Shown here piece after piece: positions 6,420-61,602 of a stretch of 64,000 bases of DNA. Source of the DNA: Beroe forskalii (Eukaryota; Ctenophora; Nuda; Beroida; Beroidae); contig WFMF01000676.1 in the NCBI GenBank assembly GCA_011033025.1, positions 1 to 64,000 of the forward strand. The letters run 5' to 3'. A program made the translations under genes and the position numbers. The notes under the pieces are model-generated. The model made no database searches. It saw only the letters and a program-made list of their open reading frames with translations, and was not told where the DNA came from. Each line of letters opens with the position of its first letter. The stretch's first letter is position 1.

Positions 6420-7330
6420 ACACCGAAAATGAATTCTCTACGACATTCCTAGCTGAAGCATGGAATTCACCTCATGGGTGTCCTGAGACCAGTTTGGCTC
6501 ATAATTCGGCCTTCGAACATTTTATGGTGCAATTTGTTAAAAGTTGTCAATAAACTGCGACGCACAACCCAAAACTCCAAAACCAAATATCTGCATTGTT
6601 CCTGAGCCAAGAGGCAAGGCACTGAAATACTGAAATACCCTGCGTTAAACCATGAGGGTGCCTCATAAATGATTATGGGCCCATAACTCAGTTTGTGAGC
6701 ATTTTAGAGCATATGTTTATCAACAAGTCGTATATAAAAATGGCCATTGCGCACATTTTCCACCCAAGATGAAGTCTCTACGACCTTCCTGAGCCAAGAT
6801 ACCGAAATACTCTAATTTGGCCATGGGTGCCCCAAAAATAGTTTTTGGCCCATAACTCGGTTTGTGAGCATTTCAGAGCATATGTTTATTAACAAGTCGT
6901 ATATAAACATGGCCATTGCGCACATTTTCCACTCCAAGAAGAAGTCTCTACGACCTTCCTGAGCCAAGATATCGAAATAGCCTAAATTAGGCCATGGTGC
7001 CCCAAAAATGGTTTTGGCCCATAACTCGGTTCCTGAGTATTTCAGAGCATTTGTTCTATTAACAATTGTACATAAACATGCTCATTGCGCACATTTTCCG
7101 CCCAAGATGAAGTCTCTACGACCTTCCTGAGCCAAGATATCGAAATAGCCTAAATTAGGCCATGCGGGTGCCCCAAAAATGGTTTTTGCCCATAACTCAG
7201 TTTGTGACATTTTAGAGCATATGTTTATTAACAAGTCGTATATAAACATGGCCATTAGCACATTTTCCGCCCAAGATGAAGTCTCTACGACCTTCCTGGA
7301 GCCGAGATACGATTTTTTACATATCAGTCT
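6420..7330 (+). repeat. Tandem repeat, about 170 bp per unit, five copies
   Basis: The anchor ATAACTCGG or ATAACTCAG (ATAATTCGG in the first copy) recurs at 6500, 6683, 6852, 7021 and 7192, giving spacings of 183, 169, 169 and 171. Each unit also carries GGCCATTGCGCACATTTTCC (or a close variant) and CTCTACGACCTTCCTGAGCC. Frames within it are not conserved, so it is a satellite-like array, not a gene. Confidence 0.85.
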
Positions 7331-11681: not shown

Positions 11682-12247
11682 CTGCCAATATTAATTAAGT
11701 GTGTTAGCAATCACCATCAATTCTACAAATATGAACAACTAGAAACAAAACTGCTTAAAGATTAGGTATATAATATAGGATTCAGATAAATGAAAGCAAA
11801 ATAACAAAATTATGTAAATTGACATTTTAAAGAATCTTACCCCAATCATCATCTTTTGGATCATCATATACTTCAGCATCTGCAATAAGGTCATTGCATT
11901 CTCCTATAGATATTTCATCATCATCATCATCAGTCACTGAATCATCATCATCTTCATATGACCTTTTACTTGCTTGTTTCCTTTTCTTCCTTTCCTGTTT
12001 GTCAGGAACTCTGTTGTTCATTGACTTTCTTTTGCTCAAAATGTCAATTGATGATGGATGGTCTGTAGTTATGTGTTTTGTGAGGAAATACTTGGTAGTT
12101 GCCTCATAACCACATTCTGAACAGGTTAATGTCACTTTCTTATGCTTTTTGGACATATGAGAATAAAGAGCTAATCGTGATTTGCAGATAAAACTACATT
12201 GACTGAATTTACGTGAGCTCTTTTCTTCTGCAGTTTTGTCCTCCACA
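9487..12247 (-). CDS. C2H2 zinc-finger protein (5' exon missing)
   Basis: Two exons (12247-11841 and 11681-9487) join in phase 1 to give about 866 residues with no start Met. A phase-2 acceptor (CTTGCCAG at 12255-12248) shows that at least one more 5' exon exists. The first exon encodes one degenerate finger (first Cys replaced), one good finger (CSECGYEATTKYFLTKHITTDH), basic nuclear-localisation-like runs and an acidic stretch. The second exon encodes another acidic stretch and about 14 further C2H2 units, including a canonical TGEKPF linker and CSYQSYRKYHLTRH. Many later fingers have long linkers and the C-terminal 170 residues have none. The family usually comprises nuclear DNA-binding proteins; the target and an orthologue cannot be named from sequence alone. 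Confidence 0.85.
11841..12247 (-). CDS. Zinc-finger gene, internal exon
   Basis: It is bounded by CAG at 12248-12250 and the donor GTAAGA at 11840. It is 407 bp long, enters in phase 2 and leaves in phase 1, matching the next exon. It carries one degenerate and one intact C2H2 finger, then a Lys/Arg-rich run and an Asp-rich run (DDDDSVTDDDDDE). The open frame continues upstream without an ATG. Confidence 0.8.
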
Positions 12248-13970: not shown

Positions 13971-14386
13971 ATAAGAAATTAGTGACGACAGTATCATAAT
14001 CACCGATAAATTTTTTAGTCAGACTTTCAAAGTGCGAGCTCTTCAGCCGTCAGCGTTCAGATTCAATTTCACCATCTTCAATCTGGCTAATCTATGAAAG
14101 TGAAACAATGTGGGTTTATAATCTTAATCTGAAAACATGCATATTACATTTTTCATAACAACATGACGTCACAGTCACATGCTCAAGACCGTTGACAGTT
14201 TGAGTTACTCATTTGCTTTCACTGAAAGTTTGATTTGATCCGACTCCCAATTCCAGCGTTAACAATGACATTAACAATAACACTAACAGTAGGTCTATTT
14301 CTAATAATAAGTACTTTTTTGTTTTACACTTACAGGTCTTATTAATATTAGAATTAGATGCCGTTGACATCTCAACCCCTTTTAAA

Positions 14387-14693
14387 ATAATGTACGATTA
14401 ACAAACGAATGGGAGTGTTATATCGAAAATTATCACACGAGGCGTTAGCCGAGTTTGACAATTTTCGATATCACACGATCCATGAGTTTGTTAATTGTAT
14501 TATTACCCGACAAAACAGTACTCGGGTCTGACGACCCTCGTCTGAATTCAACGTTTTTATAGATTTTCGAATGCTCCTTTATAAAATCAACAATTCATTT
14601 AACGATATTCTGCCACTGTTCAGTAGTCCTATAAAAGAGTGATATATCGATAATTATCACACTGGAGTTTGAGCCACGGGAGGGTAATAATCG
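14387..14693 (+). repeat. Dispersed repeat, copy 1 (second copy inverted at 39072)
   Basis: This block of about 307 bp starts AATAATGTACGATTAACAAA and ends near GAGGGTAATAAT. It recurs almost completely in reverse orientation at 39072-39399. Internal landmarks include ATCGAAAATTATCACACGAG, CTCGGGTCTGACGACCCTCG and GATATATCGATAATTATCAC. No reading frame is shared. Confidence 0.85.
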
Positions 14694-16187: not shown

Positions 16188-19100
16188 CTGAAGAGGGGAA
16201 GAGTTGGAGTCAGAATGTCAGCCGATATGGGTGAAATGGCAAATTTGACTGTGAATTTCACTCATATTTGTAAGTACTTGAAGGCACCAGAAGAAAGGAT
16301 TAACATGTGGTCATGCGAGTAACGACTAACGAAAATGATGGTCTACAGCAGTAATAACCATCAATTTTACTGGATTGTACCAATAAGATTCGGGAGATAA
16401 AATGTTTCAGCTCGAAAACATAGCAATTCGGGATTTTAACATTGTTTCACACACCGAGTAAGTTAGCGGAGGTGTAAGTAACCACTTCTCTGATCTCAGA
16501 AGTCTGCATGCTCGTAAACAGAACTTCCAGAGTCATCACGTTCTCCCTGAAACAAGTCACGTGATAGCTCTGCAATGTAAATTATATATGGGTCACGTGT
16601 GTTTCCAAGGTCACGTGGGTTTCCAAGGTCACGTGGGTTTCCAAGGTCACACGGGTTTTCAAAGCCAATGCTCGATATGTAATGCTCCCCTTTGTCACTC
16701 CCCCTTAACTCTATTTTTGGTATGAAGAACTCGGGTCGGGGCAAAGTTTCATGGCTTTTTCCGGAAATTAACTCTGCAAGCGTCTTAAAGTCACCAGGAC
16801 TATGGTCACATTATTTTGAGCCACATGAGCTTAGATCACGTACGGCAACATCACGTGGACTGAATGGACTGTTGCAATACAATCAGACTACTAGGTGATA
16901 TTCTAAAAGAATTCGAAAAGTACGGAAGAATGACGCGCGTTTTTACTCCCTAAAGTTGCAGGATGAGTTGTGATAATCATTGTATTTGTTCGGATTATCA
17001 GATCGATTTGGGAACAATTTGTTCCCAAATCGATCTGATAACAAAATCTTGTCACGAAATTCCAATGTATCAGAAAAAATGGTACGACGTATAAAAATAA
17101 AATATGGAAAATCGTAAGGCAAGCCAGTATAGCACGACAAATTTGCATCATCAATCCACCATTAATAAAGTATTTCCATGGGTAGTTCGGGAAATTAATT
17201 AATCCACAATTTTGGATCATCATTCGCATTTGAGTCTCCTCCCCTGACTGAATACAACGTTATACTTGAACTGCATCATAACTGAATGATCGAATCACTG
17301 TTTATTAGTCGCATACTGATACAGATCAATGATGATTATAGTCTCTGCGACAAAATGAAAGACGCTGATTTTAATAAATAAATCTGATTTTAATAAACTG
17401 ACATGGGGAATATTTTCGGAATTCTACTCCGTCATCAACCTCAAATTTGATTGTATAAAGTAGTGTTGTAAAGTTTAAAACTTTACAACACTACTTTATA
17501 CAATCAAATTTGAACCGTACCACTGCTCCTATAATATCCCCAACTTACGAGATATCTTCAGCTGAGTCGTAAACGATGCCCAAATCAGGTATGGAGAAGG
17601 GCGTTGCATTGATAAGTTTCCCCACTTTGTTAAACGTGTTCTGGGCCCAAGGCTTGGAGATCGCACTGCTGCTCACCTGGAATTATTGGGGTTTAGACAG
17701 GGTTTAAACAGGGTTTAAACAGGGCTTAAACAGGGTTTAAACAGGATTAAGACAGGGTTTAAACAGGATTTAAGCAAGATTGGGTATAATTGTCAACATG
17801 GAATTATCGTTAACAACTAATGATTTCTTAAGAAGAAATGATTTCTTATTGTTGTAGTCGGAATATCACGTTGTTTAGTTTTCCCCCGTAGCTTTAAACG
17901 AAAGGTTGCGGAAACAGAATGAAAAGAACTGATCAGTGGTCTTAGTTCAAAATGAGCGTAGATTCATTATTCATATCAAAGTTCAAACCATCCGTGAACA
18001 CTTGAACAGTTTTAAGTTGTGAGGATCAATGATTTTGAGTTTGTACATTGCACAATGCTCATATACGTGTCAATCAAGGGACAAGAAGCCTACGTTAATA
18101 GGTTTTAGAGGTACTGTAGCCGCATCAAATTCCGGCTTCTCTTGACATGTGTGCCAAGGTTATTCGTGAAGTGCAGTGTATTGTCAATTAGTACAAACAT
18201 ACTGCACAGAATAGTGTAGCGCTCCGACATTTGGACGACGGGGGTTTGGAGAATCTCCGTGAGTCCTTCTTAAGCCCTCGGCTTTTTTATAGAAGGAAGG
18301 TTAAAAACAATTCCAGTTACCCAGAATATAGGTGTAATATTTCCCATTACCCATTCCAAAGTAAGATAATTTAGTACTGAAATGAGTTCTAGCAAAATAT
18401 TCACCTGGGCCTCGTAGCTGATTTCCTCGCAAGCCGGCGTAGAGCAATCGCAGATATCCTCAGCTCGGGAGTGGTTGGTGAAGTCGAAGACTGGGGAGTG
18501 GAAGTTTAAAAACGCAAAGCTATATCCGATATGGGGACATCATTTTCAAGATTTTGAAATTATTTAACAGCTTGGACCGTTTAAAAGTCTGAAAATTTTT
18601 TGACCATGATGATACAATTTAAATTTTTGAGAAGCTGCGCCACTGGCTTGACGGAAGGTTAACACCTTTCATGATTGTGCTTAATCCATATTCCTTGAAA
18701 GAATTCTTGAGAAGCTGCGCCTCTCAATAATCCATAGTATTCCTTGAAAGAACCAGAGGCGTAGCCTCCCCCTTTTTGCTTTTTTGGGCAGAAATTGCGA
18801 AAATTTTGTTCACTTTGTTATAATGAGAGCTTTTAGCCAAGCAAAATAAAACATTTGACAGCTTTTTAATGTAAGTTGGCGCCTCCTTTTCAAGAATCTT
18901 GCTAAGCCCCTTGAAGAACTACTCACACCACTGGGTGTAAGTCTCCATGCCGCAGTCCACCCACTCCTTGAGCGTGCAGGACCTGTACCGTCCCACTGGG
19001 TTTCCGTCCTCGTCCACTTTCCCGTCCACGAAGTTGTTGGGAGGAACCACGTTCACACACCCGCACTTCTCGTACAGAGCTCTGAGAGGGGTTAGAAGTA

Positions 19101-22100
19101 TATGTGGAGCAAGGCAAATGTGTGATATGAAGGACACCAAAGAAAGCCTTTTAATTTCTAGTTTAATTTCTAGTTTAATTTCTAGTTGGTAAGTTCTGCG
19201 ACAGATTTTGGATAGATTTAGTATTTTCGAGAAGTTTTGAATAGTTTCAAAGTCCTTGATTTGACGGAATACCATTTGTCGAGCGAGGAGGATAGGTAAA
19301 TGGTCTATGATCACTAACTTTGAAATAAATTCTCGATAAAATTCCGGAGAAAATAATTTCTCGCTAAAAGTTGGGGGATGATGGATGTTTCGAGCTAAGA
19401 AGGGTAAGAAATCTAAGTTTTATAGGTGCTTCCATGGACTATATGATCGACAACTAACTTTCAACAACAAGGACAAATAGCTAACTTTAAAATTCTAGAT
19501 AAATTCTGCAGAAAATAAATCCTACGCACTTATCCTTGCACTCGAGAATGCAGGCCCCCTCGCTGTACACGCCATACGATGTCTCGCCAATAGAACTGTT
19601 ACAGTTGCCACTTGGAGGGGGAGATCGGATTTCCTGGGATGAGTTCAGTTTAATTCAGGAAAAGTTAAATCTGCTCTAGAGGGATTTTTTTCTAAATAAA
19701 TAAAACATCATGAAGACATCATATTTTGCATGAAATTGCGCGTGATCCAGTATGTGATTATAGAGCTTTGATTAAGCCGTTTCGCACCGTGTCCTTTTTG
19801 CCTTTAGACTTTTCTAAACTACTCTGCTGTGGTCTTATGACGTGAGATAAAAACACTTTCTCACTTTGAGAGTTGTGCAGATGCCTCCGAGACGAAGTCG
19901 AGGTGGTTGCACAGCTCCAAAAGTAAGATTGTGGTCGATATTATTAAGTATATCAGAAATGGCGATCCGAGAAATTCGAGAGTACCACGTACCTTCTTCC
20001 TGCGCAGATCCACCTTGTAGTAAGTCCCTGCACTCATGAGGAAGCCTGAGGACATGGTGGAGCCGTAGGTGGTGTTGTCGTGGAAAGCAACCGTGAAGCC
20101 CTGGGCTGGTTCGTCCTTAGTTCGCTGCCTGAAATAGGTCATCGTTAGAGGAGTAATAGGTGGAAGAGATCATGGGCAACCTAGGTGGTGTCAAATTGGC
20201 CTTTACTTGGATCAGATCTTTCTTGGATTTGAGATTACTCCCTTAATCTCAGGGACTGGAATATGAGATTTTGAAATGAGAGGAGTTTAATTTCTGACTA
20301 TTCAAATAAATGAATTTCATGAAGGGATCAAAAAGGAAATCATTATATGAAATTACGTAAATTGGACGTTGACACATTGATGACAAGGGTTACAGTTTCG
20401 CAACGTACTATACACCAAAATACACAAAACACAAACATGAAACACGAAAATCAAAAACAAATCCAAAGTGTAGCCATCCAAGGTAAGCCAATATAACGAT
20501 TGTTTTTCATGCAATATAATATATCAACACAATTTCGAAGTTCAGCCTTTGGACATTTAATAATCACAATCCATTAATCCACACTCAGAGTTCCGATTTC
20601 AGAGTTCAGCCGTTGGACATTTAATTTCAACCAGAATTCAATAATCCCGATTCAGAGTTCAGCCTTGAGGAGCTTGCCCAGGAAAGACGCTATCTTATCC
20701 ATCCACCTGGTACATGTATTCTCATCATCCACGTATCCGTAGTAAATAGGCACCCCTAGCAGAGTCAGCAACACCCACGAGACACTGGGCCAGAAGTCCA
20801 CGAAGAAAGGACCTACCACCAAGTAAACAGTGGAGAGGAAGGCCACTATTGGAACAGCCACACAGACCTTGAACTGCCGAGGGCAGTCCGGCATTTTCCA
20901 GCGGAGCAGGGGAACAGCCAGGAAACAGAGACCCCACCAGAACCATGAGAGGAAGCCCACGTAGCCTATCAGCTCGGGGATGTTAGTAGGCCAGACACAC
21001 AGGAAGGACATGATTCCGATGTAGAGGAGACCCACGATGGGAGTACCAGTCCGGGTCTGAACCAGAGCCACACACTTGGGAAACATACCTTCCTGGGCTG
21101 CAATGAAGGGAAGGCGGGAACAGACGATGAGACTGGAGGAGAGGGCACCAAAGGAGGAGATGGCGACACTCACCCCAAAGAATACCTCCCCAAAACGACC
21201 CCAACTCCCACCAAACCTTCCAAACATCTTCTTTCCAACAGTCAGAGCTATCGCAGCTTCGTCATTGAGATCAGCCAGAGTGAGGATGGAGCAGTAGGCT
21301 ATGTTTGCCAGAAGAAAGAGGGATATGAGCACCAGTTGAGAGATAACCAGGGCTCTGGGAAGATTCTTCTTGGGGTTCTTTATCTCTCCGGACATGACAT
21401 TCACACAATTCCATCCGCTGTAAGACCAGAGAGCAGCAAAGAAAGCGGTGGTCCAAACCGCAGGATTCATCTCGCTATCTCTAAATCCCACTCCGATGTT
21501 CTCTGTTTCACCCTCACAAAGCTTCCAGACTCCCAACAGGATTAGTACAAACAGAGCTGCTAGTTTCAGAACACAGAACAGATTCACCATCCTCACCCCA
21601 TACTTTGTACTGTACGAGTTCACTGCTATAATAATAGCAATAGCAACTGCAGCACCCGCCTTCTTGGTAATCAGGAAGTAGGCATGTTCTGTTGACATGA
21701 AGATAGCAGCCAGGTAGCTAGAGGAAGTCAGAGCAATGACAGCACATCCCATGGAATTCCTGAGGACTCCACAGACCCACATGTAAAGGAAAGCTGCTAG
21801 CTTCCCATACGCAGCCCTGATATACTGGTACTCCCCACCAGATCTCCTGATCAGGGTGCCCAGCTCGGAGAAAGAGAGAGCTCCACACATGGAGATCAAG
21901 CCACTTGCCACCCAGATCACCAGGGCCATCCCGGGGGATCCCACCTGCTTTATCACTTCGTTGGGGGAGACGAATATGCCTGATCCGATCACCTGACCCA
22001 CAGCGAAGAGGACGGTAGAGAAGAGGGTCATGTGGGGCTCTAGTTCGGTTGGGGAGTCATCAGACAAGGTCATCTCCGCGATGTGATCACATTGTGAGTC

Positions 22101-25100
22101 TTTGTCTAGGATGGGGATCAGCTCGCTCCTCTCATTGGCTTCATCGTCTGGGTCGTCAGATTCTGGACGACCCATATTTCTGTATTAGAGGATGATTAGA
22201 ATTCCCAGTGATTTCCCAGATAATTCCCAGTGAATCGATTGCAGTTGCTTTGTGTTTTGACTTGTGACAGAGATGTAACAACACAAGAAATCATGGATTT
22301 AGAATGTGTAGCTTTGAAAGGACCATGTGCTACGCCAACGCCCATTTCACGCTTTTTTCACTGAACAGAATGATGGTAAATTGCATGATCTTCTCTTTTC
22401 AGTTGAAGACAATGGAAAGTCAAAACATCAAATGAAAGTAACGTTTTCTCGATAATTCAATTTGTCTCTGATAACTGCATTTGCATCTTAATTCTTAGAC
22501 CTATTGATATGAAGTTTAGTCTGAACTGACGAAAAACACAGCTGCAGTGATAAGTCTGAGAGATGGCAACGATTTCTATTATAAACTCTGCTTACTCGCA
22601 GAAGCCCTTAAACGTTCATGAAATCGACTAATCAGTGTGCGAATTAACAGTCAAATCGCACGCTGATTAATCATCGCCAAATGGACCAGTGTGTAAGCGA
22701 CAATGTCGCTACTTAATCTCAATTCTTGATACAGACGACCCTGAGCAGCTCAGATTGGAACACATCCTGAGCATTGAATTGTCAAAAACTTCTAGATTCT
22801 AGATTGTTGCGAAATGTTGGTTATTTTAAACTTAGGCCCAGATTCGTCAATCCTCTGATCTCACGAGACGAGAACCATTCAATGAGTCTTTGACATATCT
22901 TTTTCAAAGTTGATCTTTATCGGGCGAGAGTGAGGTACTTTAATAAGGACCGATAGAACGGGGCAAAACATACAATTTGGAAATTAACTTTGTTGAAGAT
23001 TAGCAGAAATTAACAACATTTATCAAATAATTAACATCCCCTAGCAAGGAGGGAAGCAAGTGAGACTGAGAAGGGTAAACTTATCTGAACGGCTAATATA
23101 CATACGACCATCTGAAAGCAGTGTGAGATTGTTCAAAGGCAAAGGACAATTATTTGGGTTAGATCGGGGTGAATATATCATATAACTACGGGCAAAATTC
23201 CCAAAAAGACTTACCGGGCAAAATAATAATTGGCACTGTGGGAGTCTAGTTTTTAGTGAAAAATTTAGAAGGAATGTGTAAGTTCCTACCCCCTTTTGTA
23301 CTCACGAATAGTCCTCGATATCGGCCCAAAGCAGGAGTTTAAAGGACCCGTAATCGCCCATTTTACCGTACAGGGTGCCGTTGGGGTTGATTCTGAAGCA
23401 TTTCCCTGTGATCGACGTCTCCTGCAAATAGAAATATGATTAAGATAAGCATTTTATTTTCAAAAGATGTGCTAAAATTCTGAAAAGAACTTTAACTTTT
23501 TCAATCCACGTGGGTATCGTGATGTAATTAAATTTTTAATTTGAGACATTCGATCAATAACAAAACTTCTTCATGTTGAAATCAGGTGACATATATTGAG
23601 AACCGTACAACGCCCTTCCACGGACTCAGGCAGTACGGGCACGGCTGTCAAAGTGATATGATATCATACGCCGCGCGCGAGAAATAGGCGGTTCAACGTC
23701 ATCAATTCACTACATTGAGCTATGATAATGACGTCATCCTACCCGCCTATTTCTCGTGCGCAGAGTATAATAGATAAATAAATCACCATATTACCATGGC
23801 TATGAAGCCGCCATCGTTTTGGAAGGCAGGTAGATCCTTGCACTCTTGCGCCCGCTGAGTGCACTTCAGAACGTTCTGTATCTTAGGTCCTCCGTTCTCA
23901 ATAATGGTCTGGTATGTCATTGAGGTGATGTTGTTCCTATGAGAAGCGAGGCGTTACAAAAGTTCGCGGTGTATCATAAAGGAAAATCATTCTAACCGCG
24001 GTCTCCTGACTCTGACGAGCGGCGTATTACGACACACGTGGTCACGTGGGCATTTTTTTGCGGCACTTTATCGCGCGCGAATGTGCTTTCTTTGCAAATA
24101 CAAGGTACAGCATATTCACGAGCCGAAAAAACCCACGCGCGTCGTAATACGCATATTTTTGCATCCCCAAAATTTCGACCCGAAGAATTATTGTCCCAAA
24201 TTACTAAATTAATATGTCTCGTAAGGTAATCAATAGATCAATAACCATCGCGAGGAAGACTCACTTGACGAACTCATCCTCAGGATCGTTGAACCTCTTC
24301 CTCAGCTTTACCAACTCGTCCATATCGTACATGTCCATGGTGTTCCAGGCTTCCTTCAGCAACTCGTTACCTTCCAGATCAAGGTAGGATTTCCTTACCT
24401 GGAGCCGGGAGTAGGGAGCAGTCAGATTAGTTTTATTGAACGATAGGACTTCTCATTCGAGACTATTGAGATCTTTTCAGTAGGAAAAAAAGTTTTGAAC
24501 TCATGAAAACTGGGTGATGGAATTCCTGAAAACTGAGGGCTTCTTTAAAATTTGAGCGCACAGCACAACTCAAGCCAAGCACACAAACAGCAGTTCATTC
24601 AATATTAACGGCTATAAGTACTCAAGAGATTGAAGTTTAAACGAAATAACTGATACGAGAGAATTGTTATCAGAAGCTTTCCAAAATCATGTGAAAATCA
24701 TGTGAAAATCATGTGAAAATCATGTGAAAATCATGTGAAAATCATGTGAAAATCATGTGAAAATCATGTGAAAATCATGTGAAAATCATGTGAAAATCAT
24801 GTGAAAATCATGTGAAAATCATGTGAAAATCATGTGAAAATCATGTGAAAATCATGTGAAAATCATGAGAAAATCATGTGAAAATCATGTGAAAATCATG
24901 AGAAAATCATGTGAAAATCATGTGAAAATCATGTGATTGACGACTTACCTTGTTGCTGGAGCAGATACTGATGGTTGGGAACTTGATGGCTTTCCTCTTG
25001 GCGGGCTGTCCGTCGTCCCCGTCAGTACTTTCGTAACTATCCACCAGCACTTCGAACTTGGTACCTGGGAAGTGGGAAGTTGATTGGAGATTCTGGTGCA

Positions 25101-25812
25101 CTGGAACACCCCTATCAATCTAATCCCTGAAATCACTCTAATCCCTGACACCACTTAATTATAATTATCTGACACCACTATATTCTCTGACACCACTCTA
25201 ATCCCTGACACCACTCTACCCTCTGACACCCCGCTACTCCCTGAAACCACTCTCTTCTCTGACACCACTATATTCCCTGACACCACTCTATTCCCTGACA
25301 CCACTCTATTCCCTGAAACCACTCTAAAACCTGACACCACTTTACTCCCTGACACCACTTTACCCTCTGACACCACTCTTCTTCCTGACACCACTCTACT
25401 GCCTGACAACACTTTACCTACCTGTTGGTCGGTTGACGTATCTGACAATGGAGCTAACAATCACGGAACAGGAGTAGATGGTTAGAGCAATCCACACAAG
25501 GAGGAAGAGAATCTTCACAATCTGAAGCGGAGGGGGAGTTTTCAGAAATTTGTGGGAGTTTTTCGTGAAATTTAGGACAATTTGGTGAAATTGGGGAGAG
25601 ATCTTTAGGAGTTAGCGTCTGGTATCATCCAAGAGCACAATGTTGATCATCTTTCATGAAATATGTATAAAACCAACGCTTAAAAAATCCTTAAAAACTA
25701 AGATATGACTTCAACTTATCTTCACAATCTTGCTTGGACCCTCGAAGATATTCTTCACGCCATGAGCACTTGTTTCATTGGCAAACTCGCGGAAATCTTT
25801 AACCCAGCTCAT
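16006..25812 (-). CDS. DEG/ENaC (ASIC-like) sodium channel, 13 exons
   Basis: Thirteen exons give 1578 coding bases, 525 residues, with every intron phase consistent: 25812-25726, 25521-25422, 25064-24949, 24398-24265, 23936-23795, 23421-23306, 20128-19993, 19633-19530, 19081-18927, 18490-18405, 17676-17549, 16546-16455 and 16187-16006. The length and topology are those of a DEG/ENaC subunit, a trimeric plasma-membrane cation channel. Residues 17-18 are the N-terminal His-Gly gating motif. TM1 is at about 31-56. FPTISIC at 91-97 starts the large Cys-rich ectodomain, which contains CKDKALYEKCGC and CDCSTPAC. LLGDIGGVLGLFLGAS at about 464-479 is pre-TM2/TM2 with the G-A-S selectivity filter at 477-479. 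Ligand (proton, peptide or mechanical) cannot be told. Intron 6 contains an SLC7 gene and several introns carry minisatellites. An AG precedes the ATG, so a 5' exon may exist. Confidence 0.93.
16455..16546 (-). CDS. DEG/ENaC exon 12: last strand and pre-TM2
   Basis: It encodes NVMTLEVLFTSMQTSEIREV and TYTSANLL, the pre-TM2 segment. Phase 2 in and phase 1 out fit exons 11 and 13 exactly, which identified this short exon. The residue at the degenerin position appears to be Asn. Confidence 0.88.
16590..16670. repeat. 18-bp minisatellite in DEG/ENaC intron 11
   Basis: About four copies of GGTTTCCAAGGTCACGTG, just upstream of the exon 12 acceptor. Confidence 0.85.
16995..17041. repeat. Perfect inverted repeat, 23-bp arms
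   Basis: TTATCAGATCGATTTGGGAA plus CAA is mirrored around a single T. It lies inside DEG/ENaC intron 11. Confidence 0.85.
17441..17513. repeat. Perfect palindrome, 36-bp arms
   Basis: The arms 17441-17476 and 17478-17513 are exact reverse complements around one A. It lies in intron 11 close to exon 11 and would form a long hairpin in the pre-mRNA. Confidence 0.92.
17549..17676 (-). CDS. DEG/ENaC exon 11: distal ectodomain
   Basis: It encodes SAISKPWAQNTF, the tail of the family Y-x(5)-S-x(3)-W-P-like segment, then a stretch leading to the last palm strand. It is bounded by TTCCAG and GTAAGT, phases 0 to 2. Confidence 0.88.
17684..17785. repeat. 12-bp minisatellite in DEG/ENaC intron 10
   Basis: About eight copies of ACAGGGTTTAA(A), abutting the exon 11 acceptor region. 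Confidence 0.85.
18405..18490 (-). CDS. DEG/ENaC exon 10: CDC motif
   Basis: It encodes EDICDCSTPACEEISYEAQ, the family C-x-C-x(4)-C-x(4)-Y motif before the last palm strand. The acceptor is CCCCAG, the donor GTGAAT, phases 1 to 0. Confidence 0.92.
18927..19081 (-). CDS. DEG/ENaC exon 9: Cys-rich domain
   Basis: It encodes ALYEKCGCVNVVPPNNF and later Cys residues (RSCTLKEWVDC). The donor is a perfect GTGAGT at 18926, exiting in phase 1. Confidence 0.92.
19147..19190. repeat. 12-bp tandem repeat in DEG/ENaC intron 8
   Basis: Three to four copies of TAATTTCTAGTT, about 70 bp upstream of the exon 9 acceptor. Confidence 0.8.
19530..19633 (-). CDS. DEG/ENaC exon 8: Cys-rich thumb start
   Basis: It encodes SPPPSGNCNSS and ACILECKDK, the family LPPPxGxC and C-x(3)-C elements. 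The donor GTGCGT at 19529 gives the phase 2 required by exon 9; the alternative GTAGGA four bases on does not. Confidence 0.9.
19993..20128 (-). CDS. DEG/ENaC exon 7: palm beta-strands
   Basis: It encodes GFTVAFHDN and SAGTYYKVDLRRKK, matching the family G-F-x-[VI]-x(n)-G-T-x(n)-[IV] stretch. It is bounded by TTTCAG and GTACGT and enters in phase 2, which fits exon 6 across the nested gene. Confidence 0.92.
20540..20664 (-). repeat. Repeats of the SLC7 stop-codon motif
   Basis: The sequence spanning the SLC7 stop (GGCTGAACTCTGA in sense) recurs downstream near 20599-20611 and, diverged, near 20540. The two downstream copies also share ATTAAATGTCCAA. This suggests small tandem duplications of the 3' end of the gene. 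Confidence 0.7.
20652..22175 (-). CDS. SLC7 (LAT-type) amino-acid transporter, intronless, nested
   Basis: A single 507-codon frame encodes an APC-superfamily transporter of the SLC7 light-chain type, the plasma-membrane exchangers for neutral or cationic amino acids. TM1 carries GSGIFVSPNEVIKQVG (about 63-78), the substrate-binding glycine loop. FSELGTLIRRSGGEYQYI follows TM3 start, and AALWSYSGWNCVNVMSGEIK (about 248-267) is the TM6 signature. About 12 hydrophobic segments and a short C-terminal tail match the family length of roughly 480-530. The N-terminus is acidic and hydrophilic. The ATG at 22175-22173 follows an A-rich context. It lies in the intron between DEG/ENaC exons 6 and 7 on the same strand. 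The Cys that links vertebrate LATs to an SLC3 heavy chain is absent from the TM3-TM4 loop (FMSTEHAYF). Intronless structure suggests a retrocopy origin. Substrate is not predictable. Confidence 0.93.
   Translation of the reverse strand: MGRPESDDPDDEANERSELIPILDKDSQCDHIAEMTLSDDSPTELEPHMTLFSTVLFAVGQVIGSGIFVSPNEVIKQVGSPGMALVIWVASGLISMCGALSFSELGTLIRRSGGEYQYIRAAYGKLAAFLYMWVCGVLRNSMGCAVIALTSSSYLAAIFMSTEHAYFLITKKAGAAVAIAIIIAVNSYSTKYGVRMVNLFCVLKLAALFVLILLGVWKLCEGETENIGVGFRDSEMNPAVWTTAFFAALWSYSGWNCVNVMSGEIKNPKKNLPRALVISQLVLISLFLLANIAYCSILTLADLNDEAAIALTVGKKMFGRFGGSWGRFGEVFFGVSVAISSFGALSSSLIVCSRLPFIAAQEGMFPKCVALVQTRTGTPIVGLLYIGIMSFLCVWPTNIPELIGYVGFLSWFWWGLCFLAVPLLRWKMPDCPRQFKVCVAVPIVAFLSTVYLVVGPFFVDFWPSVSWVLLTLLGVPIYYGYVDDENTCTRWMDKIASFLGKLLKAEL
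22176..23305. other. Intronic spacer upstream of SLC7
   Basis: This lies between the SLC7 start and DEG/ENaC exon 6 and should hold the SLC7 promoter. A copy of the CCAAT-type inverted repeat family lies at 22618-22705. No further exon is seen. Confidence 0.4.
22618..22705. repeat. CCAAT/ATTGG inverted-repeat family, copy
   Basis: CTAATCAGTGTGCGA is mirrored by TCGCACGCTGATTAATCA, followed by GCCAAATGGACCAG and GTGTAAGC. This is the pattern shared with copies near 29450, 31545, 41025, 41385, 43383, 44160, 47335 and 56690. Confidence 0.65.
23306..23421 (-). CDS. DEG/ENaC exon 6: palm region
   Basis: It encodes GKCFRINPNGT and LLLWADIEDY, matching the family C-[YF]-x-[FI]-N and L-x-L-x(n)-DY pattern. 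Its donor GTGAGT at 23305 opens the intron that holds the SLC7 gene. It exits in phase 2. Confidence 0.92.
23661..23772 (-). repeat. TGACGTCATTATCA dispersed element, copy
   Basis: It carries GCTATGATAATGACGTCATC flanked by inverted CGCGAGAAATAGGCGG and CCGCCTATTTCTCGTGCGC. It matches 56843-56952 in the opposite orientation over its full length. It lies in DEG/ENaC intron 5. Confidence 0.85.
23795..23936 (-). CDS. DEG/ENaC exon 5: ectodomain
   Basis: It carries paired ectodomain cysteines in LKCTQRAQECKDLPAF and an N-glycosylation sequon NIT. The acceptor is CATAG, the donor GTAATA, phases 2 to 0. Confidence 0.9.
24008..24152. repeat. Imperfect GC-rich inverted repeat in intron 4
   Basis: GCGGCGTATTACGACACACG near 24020 is mirrored by CGCGCGTCGTAATACGC near 24135. 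It belongs to the same GC-rich theme as 13657 and 14764. Confidence 0.6.
24265..24398 (-). CDS. DEG/ENaC exon 4: variable finger/thumb region
   Basis: It is a charged helical segment (NTMDMYDMDELVKLRKRF) with no cysteine. The acceptor is CTCCAG, the donor GTGAGT at 24264, phases 0 to 2. Confidence 0.88.
24680..24940. repeat. 11-bp minisatellite in DEG/ENaC intron 3
   Basis: About 23 near-identical copies of AAAATCATGTG (two with GAG). The array begins within about 10 bases of the exon 3 splice donor. Confidence 0.97.
24949..25064 (-). CDS. DEG/ENaC exon 3: start of ectodomain
   Basis: It contains FPTISICSSNK, the hallmark post-TM1 motif with the first conserved cysteine. It is bounded by CCCAG and GTAAGT at 24948, phases 1 to 0. 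Confidence 0.93.
25105..25421 (-). repeat. 18-bp minisatellite filling DEG/ENaC intron 2
   Basis: About 17 copies of GTGGTGTCAGGGANTAGA (sense of the gene) start at the exon 2 donor and run nearly to the exon 3 acceptor, so the intron is almost entirely repeat. The first unit overlaps the ACAG/GTAGGTA donor and resembles the following CAGGNAGTA units. Confidence 0.92.
25422..25521 (-). CDS. DEG/ENaC exon 2: TM1
   Basis: It encodes a hydrophobic helix IVKILFLLVWIALTIYSCSV and then VRYVNRP at the outer end. The acceptor is CTTCAG and the donor GTAGGT at 25421. It is 100 bp long and exits in phase 1. Confidence 0.9.
25726..25812 (-). CDS. DEG/ENaC exon 1: N-terminal cytoplasmic segment
   Basis: It encodes MSWVKDFREFANETSAHGV and following residues, with the family His-Gly motif. 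The donor is a weak GTGAAG at 25725, chosen because it alone gives the phase 0 needed by exon 2. CAG directly precedes the ATG. Confidence 0.8.
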
Positions 25813-28150: not shown

Positions 28151-28396
28151 TGATATATATATATAGTCTCACGGTCGTGAGAGAACGCACTATATTATAA
28201 TGATCTTAAGTAAGAAGGGCGAGAAAAAGGGTCGGAAAATCAGATAAAAATATATATTGGGCTTCTGATCATCGCTATTTACGTAATCTAAAAGTAAAAT
28301 ATACATTTTAATTTTATTTTCCATAAAATCATTGTTTGTTTGTGTAGCATCGCGATATCGAATTGCCCATATCACTAGTGCGCTAGGATCAATAGC

Positions 28397-28452
28397 GTCA
28401 ATTTTGCTGTCACATACACACTGCGCAGTGTGTATGTGACAGCAAAATTGAC
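28397..28452. repeat. Perfect 56-bp palindrome
   Basis: The 28-bp arms meet at CTGCGCAG with no loop. The arm starts GTCAATTTTGCTGTCACATA. It is flanked by near-matching AATAGC and CTCTATTG and stands alone in AT-rich DNA. Confidence 0.93.
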
Positions 28453-28619
28453 TCTATTGATTCTATTGCGCACACCCTTGCCTAAATAAAATCATTGCGT
28501 ACAAGAAATTTAAAAGATAAACAAACCGTTTGGTGGCGAAAGGTATTCATTGGAGCACAAATTAAGGACGAATAAATATTGCGGTTTGAGTTCGGCCCTT
28601 ATATATTCTCAAACTTGAG

Positions 28620-38599: not shown

Positions 38600-40201
38600 C
38601 GGGGGATATCAGTGAGTAAGTGCAGAGACATATATGGTGAGAAAGTGCATTTAGCCAAATTTCAGAGATACCACCCACCCCATATTGCAGTTACTCACAA
38701 TAATCCAATTAATACTATGATTTTTGAAAAATTTTAAGGCACCACCCCAAAATATCGGCTAATTTGACTATTTAGACAGTTATGACAGAATTTTATTTCA
38801 ACAAAATGCTAAAATGCAACATTTTGATGAATGGTAGATTTTACACGCTAGATTAGATCACTAAATACAAATTTCTGCCTTGATACAATGATAAAAGTAT
38901 AACTTTCTATTGGTTCAATAATAAACCCGCATAAACTATAAAATAGTTATAGGATAGGGATACTTAATATATATTACATGTATTGATAGCAATATGATCC
39001 CTACCATGTTAGGAATTTTTAATTTATTTTCTAATTTCTATAGTTCATAGAAGAAATTATGAAAAAAATTATTATTACCCTACCGTGGCTCAAACTCCAG
39101 TGTGATAATTATCGATATATCACTCCTTTATAGGACTACTGAACGGTGGCGGAATAATAGAGCAGAATATCGTTGAATAAATTGCTGATTTTATGAAGGA
39201 GCACTCGAAAATCTATAAAAACGTTGAATTCAGACGAGGGTCGTCAGACCCGAGTGGTAGGGAGTACTGTTTTGTCGGGTAATAATACAATTAACAAACT
39301 CATGGATCGTGTGATATCGAAAATTGTCAAACTCGGCTGACGCCTCGTGTGATAATTTTCGATATAACACTCCCATTCGTTTGTTAATCGTACATTATTC
39401 ACGAGTCATAACAAGCTTTTATCATAAACTAGAGCGTATTACATACGTTGAATCTCAACCATAAAAATGATTGTGTGGATCTGCACACAAGAAGACAATA
39501 ATAATTGCAAATTATGAATATTTAATATCCTAACCATTTGATTTTATTATGGGAAAAACTGTTGATTGTCGAACATTCAACGAAAAAGTACACGCACAAC
39601 TTCGCACGGTGACGAATAGAAAGTCAGACTCAGTAGGTATGGACGTGAAGACGACAGAAAGCCGTATCAAAGTATCAATTCTGGGATTGGCTGGGATTAG
39701 AAAAACATTATCATTAAAGTTACTGCTATGCTTCAGTACCGTTCACTATTTTGTCTCCAGACCGGCTCTGTACACGATCATTATACGCGCCAAGTAGACT
39801 GTATAGAGAGTATAGAGACAGTAATGCTGGTAATGTAGGTAATATGTATGATACGGTGTAATCGTGTAATCAATATCTAAATGAACTGACTAGATATAGT
39901 TCTAGATATAGTTCCATAATTAGTTGTGACTTCAATTTTGAGATACAATCATATACCACACCAAAATGCTTTGAAATACCTATATTTACATCCCGACAAA
40001 GCTACAAATATTGCGGTTTTTGCTGCACTTACTCACAAATGAGTAAGTGATATTCGCCATGACCTTGGGACACCACCCATTTTCCAAGAATTCCCTATGA
40101 GTAACTGCAATGTGAGTAACTGCATCTCTGAATTTTGGAGCACGACCACCACGTGAGTAAGTGGGCATAAGGTCTGTGCACTTACTCACTGATATCCCCC
40201 G
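38600..40201. mobile_element. 1.6-kb element with 25-bp terminal inverted repeats
   Basis: CGGGGGATATCAGTGAGTAA plus GTGCA at 38600-38624 is exactly mirrored at 40177-40201. Partly matching subterminal sequence follows (ATTGTGAGTAACTGCA-like near 38690 and 40110). The interior contains the inverted copy of the 307-bp repeat (39072-39399) and no transposase; an 82-codon plus frame at 39549-39797 is unrecognised. No clear target-site duplication was seen. It is probably a non-autonomous DNA transposon. Confidence 0.7.
39072..39399 (-). repeat. Dispersed repeat, copy 2 (inverted relative to 14387)
   Basis: It reads as the reverse complement of 14387-14693 with small indels; for example CTACCGTGGCTCAAACTCCA here corresponds to TGGAGTTTGAGCCACGGGAG there. 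It lies inside the 1.6-kb TIR element. Confidence 0.85.
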
Positions 40202-41495: not shown

Positions 41496-41734
41496 AAAAG
41501 TCATTGGTAAATTAAGTGAATAAATTATGAGGACGGGGATGCTTTGAAAAAAACCTTGAAATAATCTTAGTGGATTAAAATAGATTGCTGTATTGAACGG
41601 GTGTTGAACCCTCTGTCAGTAACAGATGGTTCAAAGTTACACTCCATTCATTCAGGCACCGCCCAAAATGACACCCGTTCATTAGAGTGATACTATAGCT
41701 TGAAACCAGCTTAGGTATTCGGAAACCAGTTTAC

Positions 41735-41995
41735 CCTGACACAAGGTTGCTCTGACACCAGCCTATCCTGACACCAGTTTACTCTGACACCAGTTTACTC
41801 TGACACCTGTTAACCCTGATACCAGTTTACTCTGACACCAGTTTACTCTGACACCAGTTTACCCTGACACCAGTTTACTCTGAAACTAATTTACTCTGAA
41901 ACCAGTTTACACTGACACCAGTTTACTCTGAAACCAGTTTACCCTGGCATCAGTTTACCCTGGCACCAGTTTACTCTAACACCAGTTTGTAGCAA
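41735..41995 (-). repeat. 16-bp minisatellite sharing the TGGTGTCAG core
   Basis: About 16 copies of CTGACACCAGTTTACT (AGTAAACTGGTGTCAG on the minus strand). The unit is close to the one filling DEG/ENaC intron 2. No exon is evident next to it. Confidence 0.93.
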
Positions 41996-43475: not shown

Positions 43476-44159
43476 CTTAAACTAGATTGCAGCGGTCCAA
43501 TGTGATGTGAGGGGACATTAATTTATTCCTTCCAACTTTCCAACAACACATGGAATCATTCCAAACGTTCATGAACACAGGCAAAGCGAATCGTTGCCTG
43601 AAAGTTTTGATGCAAAATGATATGTCAGAGCTAGATTTTGAATTATTGACTACTTCATTTTCGCAGCACAATTGCCTACTTAAGCCCTAAAATAGTCTAC
43701 TTCTAAAAGTGAATATAGCATACATTTCTACACTCATCAATTTTTGACAGCCACGATTCAAAATTAACGAAAGATGTAAATTCTTATAAACCTGTCTATA
43801 CGAAAGCGCCTCTTAACTTATTCTCCTTTTTGGAGCATGTAGCACGGTATTAGCTGCTATGAATCAACGTTTGTATGGGTTTCAACAAACTTTTCAAATT
43901 CTAAGCAATCTGATAGAAATGAAATTAATTGAAGACCAAAATACAAATCCGAATAGAAATTTCTTGAAAAGTGGCTGGGGATCTATGAATTGTTTGAGTA
44001 AAATGTAGCTGGTTTTTCTTTGGGTTTTTTAGGCCGGCTAGTTTTGGCATTTTCCGACTCAATTGGCCCCAAATTCAAAAGTGCTTTCTATTGAATATGC
44101 AGATAATTTCAGTTTATTTATTTCATTGGAGAATTTTGACTTTATTCAAACACAAGGAA

Positions 44160-44245
44160 ATTTCTCGTCTAGTTTGCGAATGGAGCGGGAACTCGCTCAA
44201 ATCGCGTCATGATTGGTGTCTGTCAAATGGACCAATGGGTAAGCT
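44160..44245. repeat. CCAAT/ATTGG family, half copy
   Basis: TCGCGTCATGATTGGTGTCT, TCAAATGGACCAAT and GGGTAAGCT, right half only. Confidence 0.55.
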
Positions 44246-44440
44246 AGCTGATTTTAAGAATGATTTTGGCTGGTGTATCATAACGCAAAACCGTCACATT
44301 TCCGAACGTGGGTGATAAATCCAGATAGTTTTCTGAAAGTTTGGAATTCTTTAAAACACCGCAGTGGAGCGTCATTGCCCGGAATATGTGTGCCAATGAG
44401 AAGTTCAGACTTCGAAAAAATGTACATATTTTACAGTTTT

Positions 44441-46249
44441 AAGCAAGATATCATCTACCATATGGTAGATGATATCTTGCTTTAAAAGTTTCATTTAAAC
44501 TTTCATTTCATACCTTGCTTTCAATGGCACAAAGTGGATGCTGGGATTGGAAGTGCTAAATAGTTGTCGCGTCCGTAGCTAAAAAACAAAATTTGATATC
44601 GGATGGATATATCTATTGGCATGAGTCAAAAATTGGAATAAAAAATATAAATTGTTAACTACTCACGTCTTAGAGGAGATCTGTCGTCCTCGTATTATCT
44701 GTCTTGGTTCACGGCTAGGGGGGAAAACATGGGTTAAATCCGACAAATTTGATTGAGAAATATGTTTTGCAGAAATTAAAGTTAAACCAAATCTAAGAAA
44801 ATAACAGACTGAATTCAATCTGTTATTTTCTTAGATTTGGTTTAAATTCTGCAAAATATATTTTTTAATCTAAATTTGTCGGATTTAACCCATGTTTTCC
44901 CCCTAGCCGTGAACCAAGACAGATAAAACGAGGACGACAGATCTCCTCTAAGACGTGAGTAGTTAACAATTCATGTTTTACATTCCAATTTTTGACTCAT
45001 GCCAGATGCCAATAGAGATATCTAGACCGTTATCTGATTTGTTTTTTGCTACGGACGCGACAACTATTTAGCACTTCCAATCTCAGCATCCACTTTGTGC
45101 CATTGAAAGCAAGGTATGAAATGAAAGTTTAAATGACACTTTTAAAGCAAGATATCATCTACCATATGGTAGATGATATCTTGCTTTAAAAGTTTCATTT
45201 AAACTTTCATTTCATACCTTGCTTTCAATGGCACAAAGTGGATGCTGGGATTGGAAGTGCTAAATAGTTGTCGCGTCCGTAGCTAAAAAACAAAATTTGA
45301 TATCGGATGGATATATCTATTGGCATGAGTCAAAAATTGGAATAAAAAATATAAATTGTTAACTACTCACGTCTTAGAGGAGATCTGTCGTCCTCGTATT
45401 ATCTGTCTTGGTTCACAGCTAGGGGGGAAAACATGGGTTAAATCCGACAAATTTGATTGAGAAATATGTTTTGCAGAAATTAAAGTTAAACCAAATCTAA
45501 GAAAATAACAGACTGAATTCAGTCTGTTATTTTCTTAGATTTGGTTTAACTTTAATTTCTGCAAAACATATTTCTCAATCAAATTTGTCGGATTTAACCC
45601 ATGTTTTCCCCCCTAGCTGTGAACCAAGACAGATAATACGAGGACGACAGATCTCCTCTAAGACGTGAGTAGTTAACAATTTATATTTTTTATTCCAATT
45701 TTTGACTCATGCCAATAGATATATCCATCCGATATCAAATTTTGTTTTTTAGCTACGGACGCGACAACTATTTAGCACTTCCAATCCCAGCATCCACTTT
45801 GTGCCATTGAAAGCAAGGTATGAAATGAAAGTTTAAATGACACTTTTAAAGCAAGATATCATCTACCATATGGTAGATGATATCTTGCTTTAAAAGTTTC
45901 ATTTAAACTTTCATTTCATACCTTGCTTTCAATGGCACAAAGTGGATGCTGGGATTGGAAGTGCTAAATAGTTGTCGCGTCCGTAGCTAAAAAACAAAAT
46001 TTGATATCGGATGGATATATCTATTGGCATGAGTCAAAAATTGGAATAAAAAATATAAATTGTTAACTACTCACGTCTTAGAGGAGATCTGTCGTCCTCG
46101 TATTATCTGTCTTGGTTCACAGCTAGGGGGGAAAACATGGGTTAAATCCGACAAATTTGATTGAGAAATATGTTTTGCAGAAATTAAAGTTAAACCAAAT
46201 CTAAGAAAATAACAGACTGAATTCAGTCTGTTATTTTCTTAGATTTGGT
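44441..46249. repeat. Array of five 352-bp arms in alternating orientation
   Basis: Perfect local palindromes at 44461/44462, 44813/44814, 45165/45166, 45517/45518, 45869/45870 and 46221/46222 alternate between an ACCATATGGT centre and a GAATTC centre, each 352 bp apart. The intervening arms are the same sequence read alternately forward and reverse (44462-44813, 44814-45165, 45166-45517, 45518-45869, 45870-46221), with partial arms of about 21-28 bp at both ends. Arm 2 carries several substitutions and compensating indels, while arms 3 to 5 are nearly identical. No long frame exists. Confidence 0.95.
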
Positions 46250-47170
46250 AAATGGGCAAGGGCCATTATAATGGCCAGATATTATGGCCAGATATCATGA
46301 TGCAACACCCATAAGAATACGGATAAAACAGGTATAAATTAAGCAATCAGGAGCAATATCCGAAGGTTGAGCAAGCAACGGTAGAGCAAGGTCTGAGGAT
46401 TATGCAAATCTATGCAGCGTTTTGCACCGCAGAGAATAAAGTCATCTCACTGAAATGAGGGTCAGTGAGGAGTAATACATAGGGGCGGGGCAGAGACTAG
46501 GATTGGAAGGGCGTGGTCGACTGTTAATTCGAACCATGAACTTATTCATTTCTATGCCCGATACTAAATTTATGCGATAGAAACCAAACATGGCTTTCAG
46601 TTCAAATAGTGCAAAAATCCAACATAATTCCGGGGATTATTGCACTTAGTGAAAGTCAGTCGCCGCATCCAAAAGCTGAAGATAATATTCCATTTACGGA
46701 ACATGATTGACATGGAATCTTAAGAACGTGAATATCCAATCTGCGTATTTCCTTCAAGGATTCTGGACTCTGAAGACTTTGAAGAGTCCAAGAAATTACA
46801 TGAAAATTGAAGGCAAATGACATCCGCTAAGCAACGGCGAATACCGCATGCGCATAAATCTGGAAATCACAGAATAAATAATTCCAAAGTTCACAAAAAT
46901 TTTATGCTATGCAAAATATACTAAATAGACAGTTCAGCATATATCTAGAATCTGGTCAAAAGGGCAGATGAAGGGTTTAGCGTGCTAATGAAGGGAAACT
47001 TGGAGCAAATGATGTCGAGTCTGGATGTTCAGTAATTCATATTCGACAGCCAAAGAACCTCCATAGTGGGGAGGGTCCAAGGTTTTAACCGACTGCAGGT
47101 TTAAATTCTTCGGAAATTCATGTCAACCAGGGTCCTATTTATCAAAATCAAACCAAGATCGAGTAGTCCT
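46250..47170. other. Gene-free region
   Basis: No gene or clear repeat was recognised to the right of the palindrome array. Confidence 0.3.
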
Positions 47171-60318: not shown

Positions 60319-61602
60319 TCAGTGATGTCCACGTACTCCATTTCCTCGTTCACAGCTCCAGTCGAGTAAGGAGTTGCTGTTTGGAGGTGTGTAACCCGGA
60401 ACCGGTGGCTTATCCGGGTATTGGGCGAGGAATTCTCCCAGGGCTATCTTGAATGCCTCTAGCTCCTTCACCGTGTTGACTTGCTTCGGGAGCAAGTTCC
60501 AGAGCCGAGCAGATTTTACCCCAAATGAATTGTCATATGCAGTTGACACCGAGCGCTGTGCCTTGTAATTGAATGGTAGAATTTTTGCTCGGACTCCAAG
60601 ACGTTCATTGCAGTAGAATTCCAAACTAGTGCTGTTCGGGGCCTTTTCCTGCAGAATTTTCCAAGTATGGATTATGGTGTATCTTTCTCTTCTGCGTTGA
60701 AGGGACATCAGCTTTAGTTTCTTCAGACAGTCCCAGTAGTCAAGATCCTTGGTCACAGCAATGCGTTTGGTAAAGTATCGCTGGGTTGATTTTACTGCTT
60801 GAATGTCCTTTATCAGATGAGGGTCCCAGACAGGGCAACAGTACTCCAATCTACTCCTTACTAGGGACTTGAAAAGGGTCAGCATTGTCAGTTCAGTTCT
60901 ATCCCGTACCCACGATGCCATTTTTCGGGAGTCTGTGACAACGTTGTTCACCTGCAGAGTCCAGCTGCAATCGTCTGTTATGTGGACACCAAGATCTCTC
61001 ACGGATGATGTCGGTTGGAGGATGTTACCATCAGGCGTTGTGTACTGTCTCAGCTCTGCAGTGAAGGGCAGGTTCCGCAAGAGGTAGGAGTTGTTGAGGC
61101 AGAAGTTCATGACCTCGAACTTATCCTGGTGGAGCACCATATTGTTGTTCAGAGACCAACTGACAACTTGATCCAGATCATTCTGTAGCAAACCCTTACA
61201 TAACATGGTAATAATCTGGTGCAGGAGCTTGGTGTCGTCAGCAAAAGCGAGTGGTTTTGATGAGGCCATCTTGATGATCATGTCCACCACGTAGAGAATG
61301 AAGAATATCGGTCCCAACACGGTGCCCTGAGGGACGCCACTTTCCACGTTAGCAAACTCTGATTTATTCCCATCAACCACCACGGCTTGACGCCTGTTTG
61401 AGAGGAAGTCTTCTATCCAGTTTAAGAGCTTGCCTTTGATGCCGTAATGCTCCAATTTGGCTAGAAGTATGCGATGGTCTACCTTGTCAAAAGCTTTGCT
61501 GTAATCCAGATAGATGACATCAACCTCGTTACCCTCATTTAGGCTCTTAAGTATGGTTAATACCATATTCCTGAATATTGGTATACACATCACATAGTCC
61601 AA
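60319..61602 (-). mobile_element. 5'-truncated CR1-like LINE reverse transcriptase
   Basis: A 427-codon open frame encodes most of a non-LTR reverse transcriptase. Palm motif A is VIYLDYSKAFDKVDHRILL, motif B is SGVPQGTVLGPIFFILYV and motif C is FADDTKLL, followed by the thumb and C-terminal region (LGVHITDDCSW, RSRLEYCCPVWDPH, RLWNLLP). The style is that of CR1-like elements. Similarity begins abruptly near 61580 inside RT, so the endonuclease and RT N-terminus are missing. The frame is intact, indicating a fairly recent insertion. The last residues may be out of frame: an overlapping frame reads VNEEMEYVDITDPNCDPC to a later stop near 60299. It is not expected to be mobile itself. Confidence 0.9.

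What the first reader, a model, noticed from the sequence alone, without database searches (positions are those of the whole stretch)
44441..46249. Five 352-bp arms in strictly alternating orientation
Six palindrome centres are exactly 352 bp apart and alternate between two sequences, so the locus is a chain A-A'-A-A'-A. Both junction types are perfect palindromes. Such a chain could extrude multiple cruciforms or fold into a large double-stranded RNA. One arm is clearly diverged, so the structure is not merely one read folded on itself, but arms 3-5 are almost identical and an assembly or chimera artefact must be excluded. It may be a fold-back transposon or a rolling or hairpin amplification product.
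Basis: seen in the sequence. Interest (0 to 1): 0.85.

Follow-up and report, generated by a model that had tools for sequence, protein, structure and literature searches.

The report
Five-fold inverted repeat chain
A stretch of 352 DNA letters in what looks like an invertebrate genome has been copied forwards and backwards into a chain of five, most likely by copying errors that bounce between two small hairpins, a small natural version of a rearrangement studied in yeast and cancer cells.

Summary
Five 352-bp arms alternate in orientation (44462-46221), with six centres exactly 352 bp apart and a short inverted stub at each end (21 and 28 bp perfect). One of six junctions (44813|44814) is imperfect. 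Arms 1, 3, 4 and 5 differ pairwise at two sites at most; arm 2 is about 90% identical. Genome searches found no second place for the arm and none for the full flanks, and no target-site duplication beyond chance, so a fold-back transposon is not supported. Odd copy number, retained flanks, two alternating junctions and a short palindrome at each outer border fit an inverted triplication enlarged to five (2n+1), as in tandem inversion duplication, small inverted triplication and ODIRA. Arm 4 is a mosaic: arm 3 reversed except for one base shared with arm 2, beside a 53-bp stretch identical in both; a strand may have snapped back on arm 3 and re-entered arm 2. A diverged arm 2 rules out one arm simply re-read, but arms 4-5 could be an assembly error through the same 53 bp; raw reads are needed. 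New variant of a known kind: small, loop-free, five-fold. Species not identified.

The parts
44437..44461 (-). left stub: first bases of an inverted arm; 21 bp perfect palindrome partner of arm 1, then fading homology; inferred pre-existing palindrome P1
44462..44813 (+). arm 1; site 29 = T (44490), site 252 = G (44713)
44814..45165 (-). arm 2, inverted, about 90% identical to the rest; site 29 = G (45137), G at the aligned site 252
45166..45517 (+). arm 3; site 29 = T, site 252 = A
45518..45869 (-). arm 4, inverted; identical to arm 3 except site 29 = G (45841), as in arm 2: mosaic
45870..46221 (+). arm 5; identical to arm 3
46222..46249 (-). right stub: 28 bp perfect palindrome partner of arm 5; inferred pre-existing palindrome P2
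45084..45136 (-). 53-bp stretch of arm 2 (arm positions 30-82) identical in all five arms; inferred place of the strand switch that made arm 4 a mosaic
   Evidence: (arm 3 against arm 2), alignment of all five; window position worked out from arm 2 ending at 45165

Best explanation
A single-copy 352-bp stretch, bordered by a short loop-free palindrome on each side (P1 left, P2 right), was amplified in place into an inverted 2n+1 chain by template switching during DNA synthesis. A nascent strand passed a palindrome, folded back and copied its own strand as far as the other palindrome, folded again, and then resumed the original template, giving A-A'-A with both flanks kept. SHOWN: geometry, arm differences, mosaic of arm 4, stubs, no second place found for the arm. 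INFERRED: the order of events, fold-back priming, and that the stubs are ancestral palindromes. Arm 2's divergence is old or from error-prone synthesis, with arms 1 and 3 kept alike by conversion. An equal alternative for the second round is unequal crossing-over of a three-arm chain followed by conversion of arm 4.
For: Odd number of arms, outer arms in the same orientation, flanks without a second full-length place. Two alternating junction sequences, each also present as a short palindrome at the matching outer border; stubs of 28 bp or less at both ends would occur in about 0.65% of random cuts of an endless chain (simulation). The arm was found only here in 216 Mb (word-based first look). 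Arm 4 carries arm 2's base at site 29 but is otherwise arm 3 reversed, with a 53-bp identical stretch next to the switch. Yeast SUL1 inverted amplicons are reported as triplications '(or multiples of 2n + 1)' with, with one exception, junctions from natural short inverted repeats, and the tandem-inverted-duplication model needs no origin (PMC4689423, passages); small inverted triplications of 148/160/148 bp (medians) are reported in yeast and cancer genomes (PMC13334657, abstract and passages).
Against: Arm 2 is 10% diverged while its neighbours 1 and 3 differ at one site, so a single recent event does not suffice; homogenisation that skipped arm 2, or error-prone copying, must be added. The small inverted triplications of PMC13334657 have median 30-bp spacers and 6-bp junctions; here spacers are zero and junctions 21-28 bp. 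No outgroup or empty allele was available to show the single-arm ancestor. The stubs could be remnants of further arms cut near a palindrome centre. The mosaic of arm 4 rests on one base, and so does the difference between arms 1 and 3.
Confidence: 0.6

Rival explanations
1. Partial assembly artefact: the real locus is arm1-arm2-arm3 (an inverted triplication) and arms 4-5 were added by a graph walk or chimeric read that turned round at P2 and rejoined through the 53-bp stretch.
For: Arms 3 and 5 are identical and arm 4 differs by the one base that a walk through the 53 bp shared with arm 2 would give. The perfect 56-bp palindrome at P2 is its own reverse complement.
Against: No N in the window or in 33 fetched loci, of which 20 lie outside the window, and a contig of 2.5 Mb among those seen suggest long contiguous reads that would span 1.8 kb; from general knowledge a short-read assembler would more likely break or collapse here. 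The sequencing method is unknown to me.
Confidence: 0.17
2. Insertion of a palindromic mobile element or dumbbell-type molecule (hairpin-capped 352-bp duplex, copied as a concatemer) from elsewhere.
For: A 704-nt self-complementary circle copied head to tail would give this chain. The same genome holds a high-copy, nearly loop-free palindromic repeat (window 17276-17513; 1236 first-look candidates, 40 scored; 16 of 18 examined loci show a palindrome over family sequence, 12 of the 18 having been chosen because one search matched them on both strands).
Against: No second place found for the arm, no target-site duplication beyond chance (6 bp; 40% of 300 controls do as well), both stubs improbably short for random breaks, no match between the chain and the high-copy family.
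Confidence: 0.13
3. Hairpin-RNA locus kept by selection, giving small interfering RNAs.
For: The transcript would fold strongly. hpRNA loci silencing meiotic-drive genes are described in Drosophila simulans (PMC10317233, PMC10292708; search listing and start of abstract only).
Against: No target-like second match of the arm in the genome (short 21-nt matches were not searched); arm 2 is not kept complementary in its middle. No RNA data.
Confidence: 0.06

Closest known systems
Tandem inversion duplication (TID; Kugelberg et al. model, seen only as described in a passage of PMC4689423)
   Same: A nascent strand folds back at one short inverted repeat, copies itself to a second, then resumes; result A-A'-A with flanks kept; no origin needed.
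   Different: Five arms, 352 bp, loop-free junction palindromes, in what looks like an animal genome.
Small inverted triplication (SIT, PMC13334657, abstract and passages)
   Same: Same DUP/INV/DUP plan and size class (duplications 7 bp to >10 kb, median 148 bp; inverted part median 160 bp).
   Different: SITs have spacers (median 30 bp), 6-bp junctions and three copies; here zero spacer, 21-28-bp junctions, five copies, one arm clearly diverged.
[quoted passage not shown] PMC4689423 passages; PMC10766183 two passages)
   Same: 2n+1 alternating copies; junctions at natural inverted repeats; flanks retained.
   Different: ODIRA amplicons contain a replication origin with two diverging forks; not shown, and hard to fit, in 352 bp.
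Fold-back/Galileo-like transposons (features recalled; PMC4168063 seen in a search listing only)
   Same: Long, nearly perfect inverted arms.
   Different: No family members found, no target-site duplication, arms chained rather than paired.

Membership tests
Tandem inversion duplication / small inverted triplication | Odd number of alternating copies with both outer copies in the same orientation | tested here: met
Tandem inversion duplication / small inverted triplication | Junctions lie at short inverted repeats that also occur at the borders of the unit | tested here: met
   21-bp and 28-bp stubs
Tandem inversion duplication / small inverted triplication | Made in place from a single-copy segment | tested here: inconclusive
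   No other place of the arm found, but no ancestral single-arm allele available
Small inverted triplication | Spacer of about 30 bp and about 6-bp junction (medians in PMC13334657) | tested here: not met
   spacer 0, junction 21-28 bp; hence a variant, not filed as an SIT
ODIRA | Replication origin inside the amplified unit | not testable with these tools
   no origin data
Fold-back transposon | Dispersed copies with the same arms | tested here: not met
   matches only in this locus (first look is word-based; diverged copies could be missed)
Fold-back transposon | Target-site duplication at the two ends | tested here: not met
   exact repeats only, ends sought within 44425-44465 and 46218-46261: best 6 bp, reached by 40% of 300 control pairs
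Hairpin-RNA (hpRNA) locus | Transcription and siRNA production | not testable with these tools
   no RNA data
Hairpin-RNA (hpRNA) locus | Homology of the arm to a target gene | tested here: inconclusive
   no long second match; short matches not searched

The most novel reading that the evidence does not exclude
A chromosomal rolling-hairpin locus: a 352-bp segment between two loop-free palindromes that grows two arms at a time in an animal germ line, ping-pong fashion like the ends of a parvovirus genome (comparison recalled, from no call) but without any virus, with arm 4's mosaic as a record of one growth step. Its copy number would then vary among individuals.
Probability: 0.15. Interest if true: 0.75.

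Novelty: new variant of a known kind. Interest (0 to 1): 0.42.

Why it matters
Inverted triplications drive gene amplification in yeast and occur in human genome disease and cancer. Here diagnostic bases let two steps be tentatively ordered in one small natural locus, and they suggest how a three-arm chain becomes five. If confirmed by reads it is a compact natural test case for fold-back copying between palindromes and for how perfect palindromes survive in a genome.

Tried and rejected
Transposon reading: looked for other copies of the arm and of the flanks, and for target-site duplications; none, apart from three short matches of the left flank, 45-62 bp at 81-87% identity. Coding reading: the longest stop-to-stop frames in the chain are 55 codons and run across a junction; no Rfam family in the window at gathering score. 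Raw-read-error reading of arm 2: 26 substitutions against 5 indel events (arm 3 v arm 2) is not the indel-rich pattern I recall for raw long reads. Idea that G at site 29 came from the left stub: the stub differs there by two further changes, so I dropped it. The differences of arm 2 look clustered by one measure (sum of squared gaps, P = 0.028) and not by another (longest gap, P = 0.19); weak, not used. Background rate of palindromes: 0 with perfect arms of 20 bp or more and loops of at most 10 in 116,580 bases of 12 stretches (L014-L025; three chosen because flank matches lay on those contigs, L014 being the rest of this contig) against 3 in the window outside the chain; too little for a rate. 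Naming the species through cytochrome oxidase or ribosomal RNA: not answered.

Full report
What is there. The region 44437-46249 is a chain of five 352-bp arms, + - + - +, between two short inverted stubs. The six centres are exactly 352 bp apart and of two kinds: P1 (44461|44462, 45165|45166, 45869|45870) and P2 (44813|44814, 45517|45518, 46221|46222). Perfect complementarity outward from the six centres, left to right, is 21, 4 (one mismatch at the 5th pair, then 27 perfect pairs), 28, 323, 28 and 28 bp. The largest self-complementary block has 476-bp arms at 99%.

How the arms differ. In arm 1's numbering, site 29 reads T, G, T, G, T in arms 1 to 5 and site 252 reads G, G, A, A, A. Arm 2 differs from arm 3 by 26 substitutions and five indel events; two of those substitutions are sites 29 and 252, so 24 are its own. 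A patch near arm positions 130-155 can be aligned in more than one way, so the count is approximate (blastn identity 90%). Arm 4 is arm 3 reversed except for one base that it shares with arm 2. Between site 29 and the next difference of arm 2 (site 83) lie 53 bp identical in all five arms.

Where it lies. The window is the first 64,000 of 70,580 bases of contig C776 of a 216-Mb assembly of 1,134 contigs. Its genes are those of a eukaryote, by my inference probably an invertebrate animal: an SLC7-type amino-acid transporter at 20652-22175 (closest solved relative y+L transporter 2; Pfam amino acid permease), a C2H2 zinc-finger protein at 9487-11688, and retroelement pieces with reverse transcriptase (60319-61602) and RNase H (2421-3080). 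In the chain the longest stop-to-stop frames have 55 codons, and the window has no Rfam match at gathering score. I could not name the species: the marker-gene searches did not complete.

Is it repeated elsewhere? Searches of the own genome with arm 3, arm 2 at E up to 1 and a 136-bp stretch of arm 2 at E up to 10 found only this locus. The right flank with stub (46222-46800) found itself and the last 28 bp of arm 5, inverted. The left flank with stub (43901-44461) found itself and three short partial matches of 45-62 bp at 81-87%. The tool warns that its first look is by words and skips very common ones, so diverged copies could be missed. There is no exact target-site duplication beyond chance (best 6 bp; 40% of 300 control pairs reach it).

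Most likely origin. An odd number of alternating copies with flanks retained, two junction types, and a short version of each junction palindrome at the matching outer border are what the tandem-inversion-duplication model predicts: a strand folds back at one inverted repeat, copies itself to a second, and resumes (as described in PMC4689423, passages). The same paper reports yeast SUL1 amplicons as triplications or multiples of 2n + 1. Small inverted triplications, median 148/160/148 bp, are reported from FEN1(rad27)-deficient yeast and cancer genomes (PMC13334657, abstract and passages). Random cutting of an endless chain would leave both stubs at 28 bp or less in about 0.65% of cases (simulation), although nucleases that cut near palindrome centres could also leave short stubs.

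The second round. Arm 4's mosaic has a simple reading: fold-back at P2 copies arm 3 into arm 4; within the 53 shared bp the strand enters arm 2, takes its G at site 29, crosses P1 and copies arm 3 again as arm 5, ending in the right flank. An equally possible reading is unequal crossing-over of a three-arm chain (arms 2 and 4 then start as twins) followed by conversion of arm 4 by its neighbours. Both are inferences that rest on one base. Neither explains by itself why arm 2 is 10% diverged while arms 1 and 3 differ at one site; homogenisation of the other arms or error-prone synthesis of arm 2 must be added.

Artefact. The chain cannot be one arm simply re-read, because arm 2 differs along most of its length and arms 1 and 3 differ at site 252 (a single base, so thinner evidence). 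Arms 4-5 could be an error, since a graph walk with words of up to about 53 bases has the same path open as the proposed strand switch. A contig of 2.5 Mb and no N in the window and 33 fetched loci, 20 of them outside the window, suggest long reads, but I have no reads.

Context. Outside the chain the window holds three other palindromes with loops of at most 1 nt and perfect arms of 23 bp or more: 16995-17041 (no other place among the 40 of 1236 candidates scored, which another repeat in the same query dominates), 28378-28473 (no other place), and one at 17441-17513 that is the end of a high-copy repeat. Of 18 loci of that family examined, 16 show a self-inverted match running through its own centre over family sequence, 47 to 446 bp long and 71-99% identical; L029 and L031 do not. 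Six of the 18 were the window copy and the five best other matches; 12 were chosen because one search listed them on both strands, so the share is biased upward. No match between this family and the chain appears. It shows that loop-free palindromes are widespread in this assembly, not that the chain belongs to that family.

Literature. Searches with inverted-array and alternating-orientation wording listed no paper that, by title and start of abstract, describes such a five-arm chain (15 of 56 papers listed; 1 of 1; 1 of 1: 15 of 75: 2 of 2). The library lacks most subscription papers, so this is weak. PMC10766183 was seen in two passages, PMC10317233 and PMC10292708 in the search listing only.

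Noticed in passing
window 17276-17513, loci L026-L031, L034-L045: High-copy repeat (1236 first-look candidates, 40 scored). In 16 of 18 examined loci (12 picked for two-strand matches) it forms a nearly loop-free palindrome, with second arms from about 23 bp to full length; its hairpin seems to be extended or cut to different extents.
   Followed up: partly
window 28378-28473 and 16995-17041: Two further palindromes with loops of 0 and 1 nt (28-bp and 23-bp perfect arms); no other place seen (in one search only 40 of 1236 candidates were scored).
   Followed up: partly
window 14386-14691 and 39071-39399: Inverted repeat pair, 95-99% alike in three pieces, about 24.5 kb apart.
   Followed up: no
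L028 around 1867-2426: Tandem repeat of about 160 bp period lies directly beside a full palindromic copy of the high-copy repeat.
   Followed up: no
window 24683-24936, 25119-25413, 41725-41988, 6656-7309: Several tandem arrays (periods 11, 18, 16 and 169 bp) in the same window.
   Followed up: no
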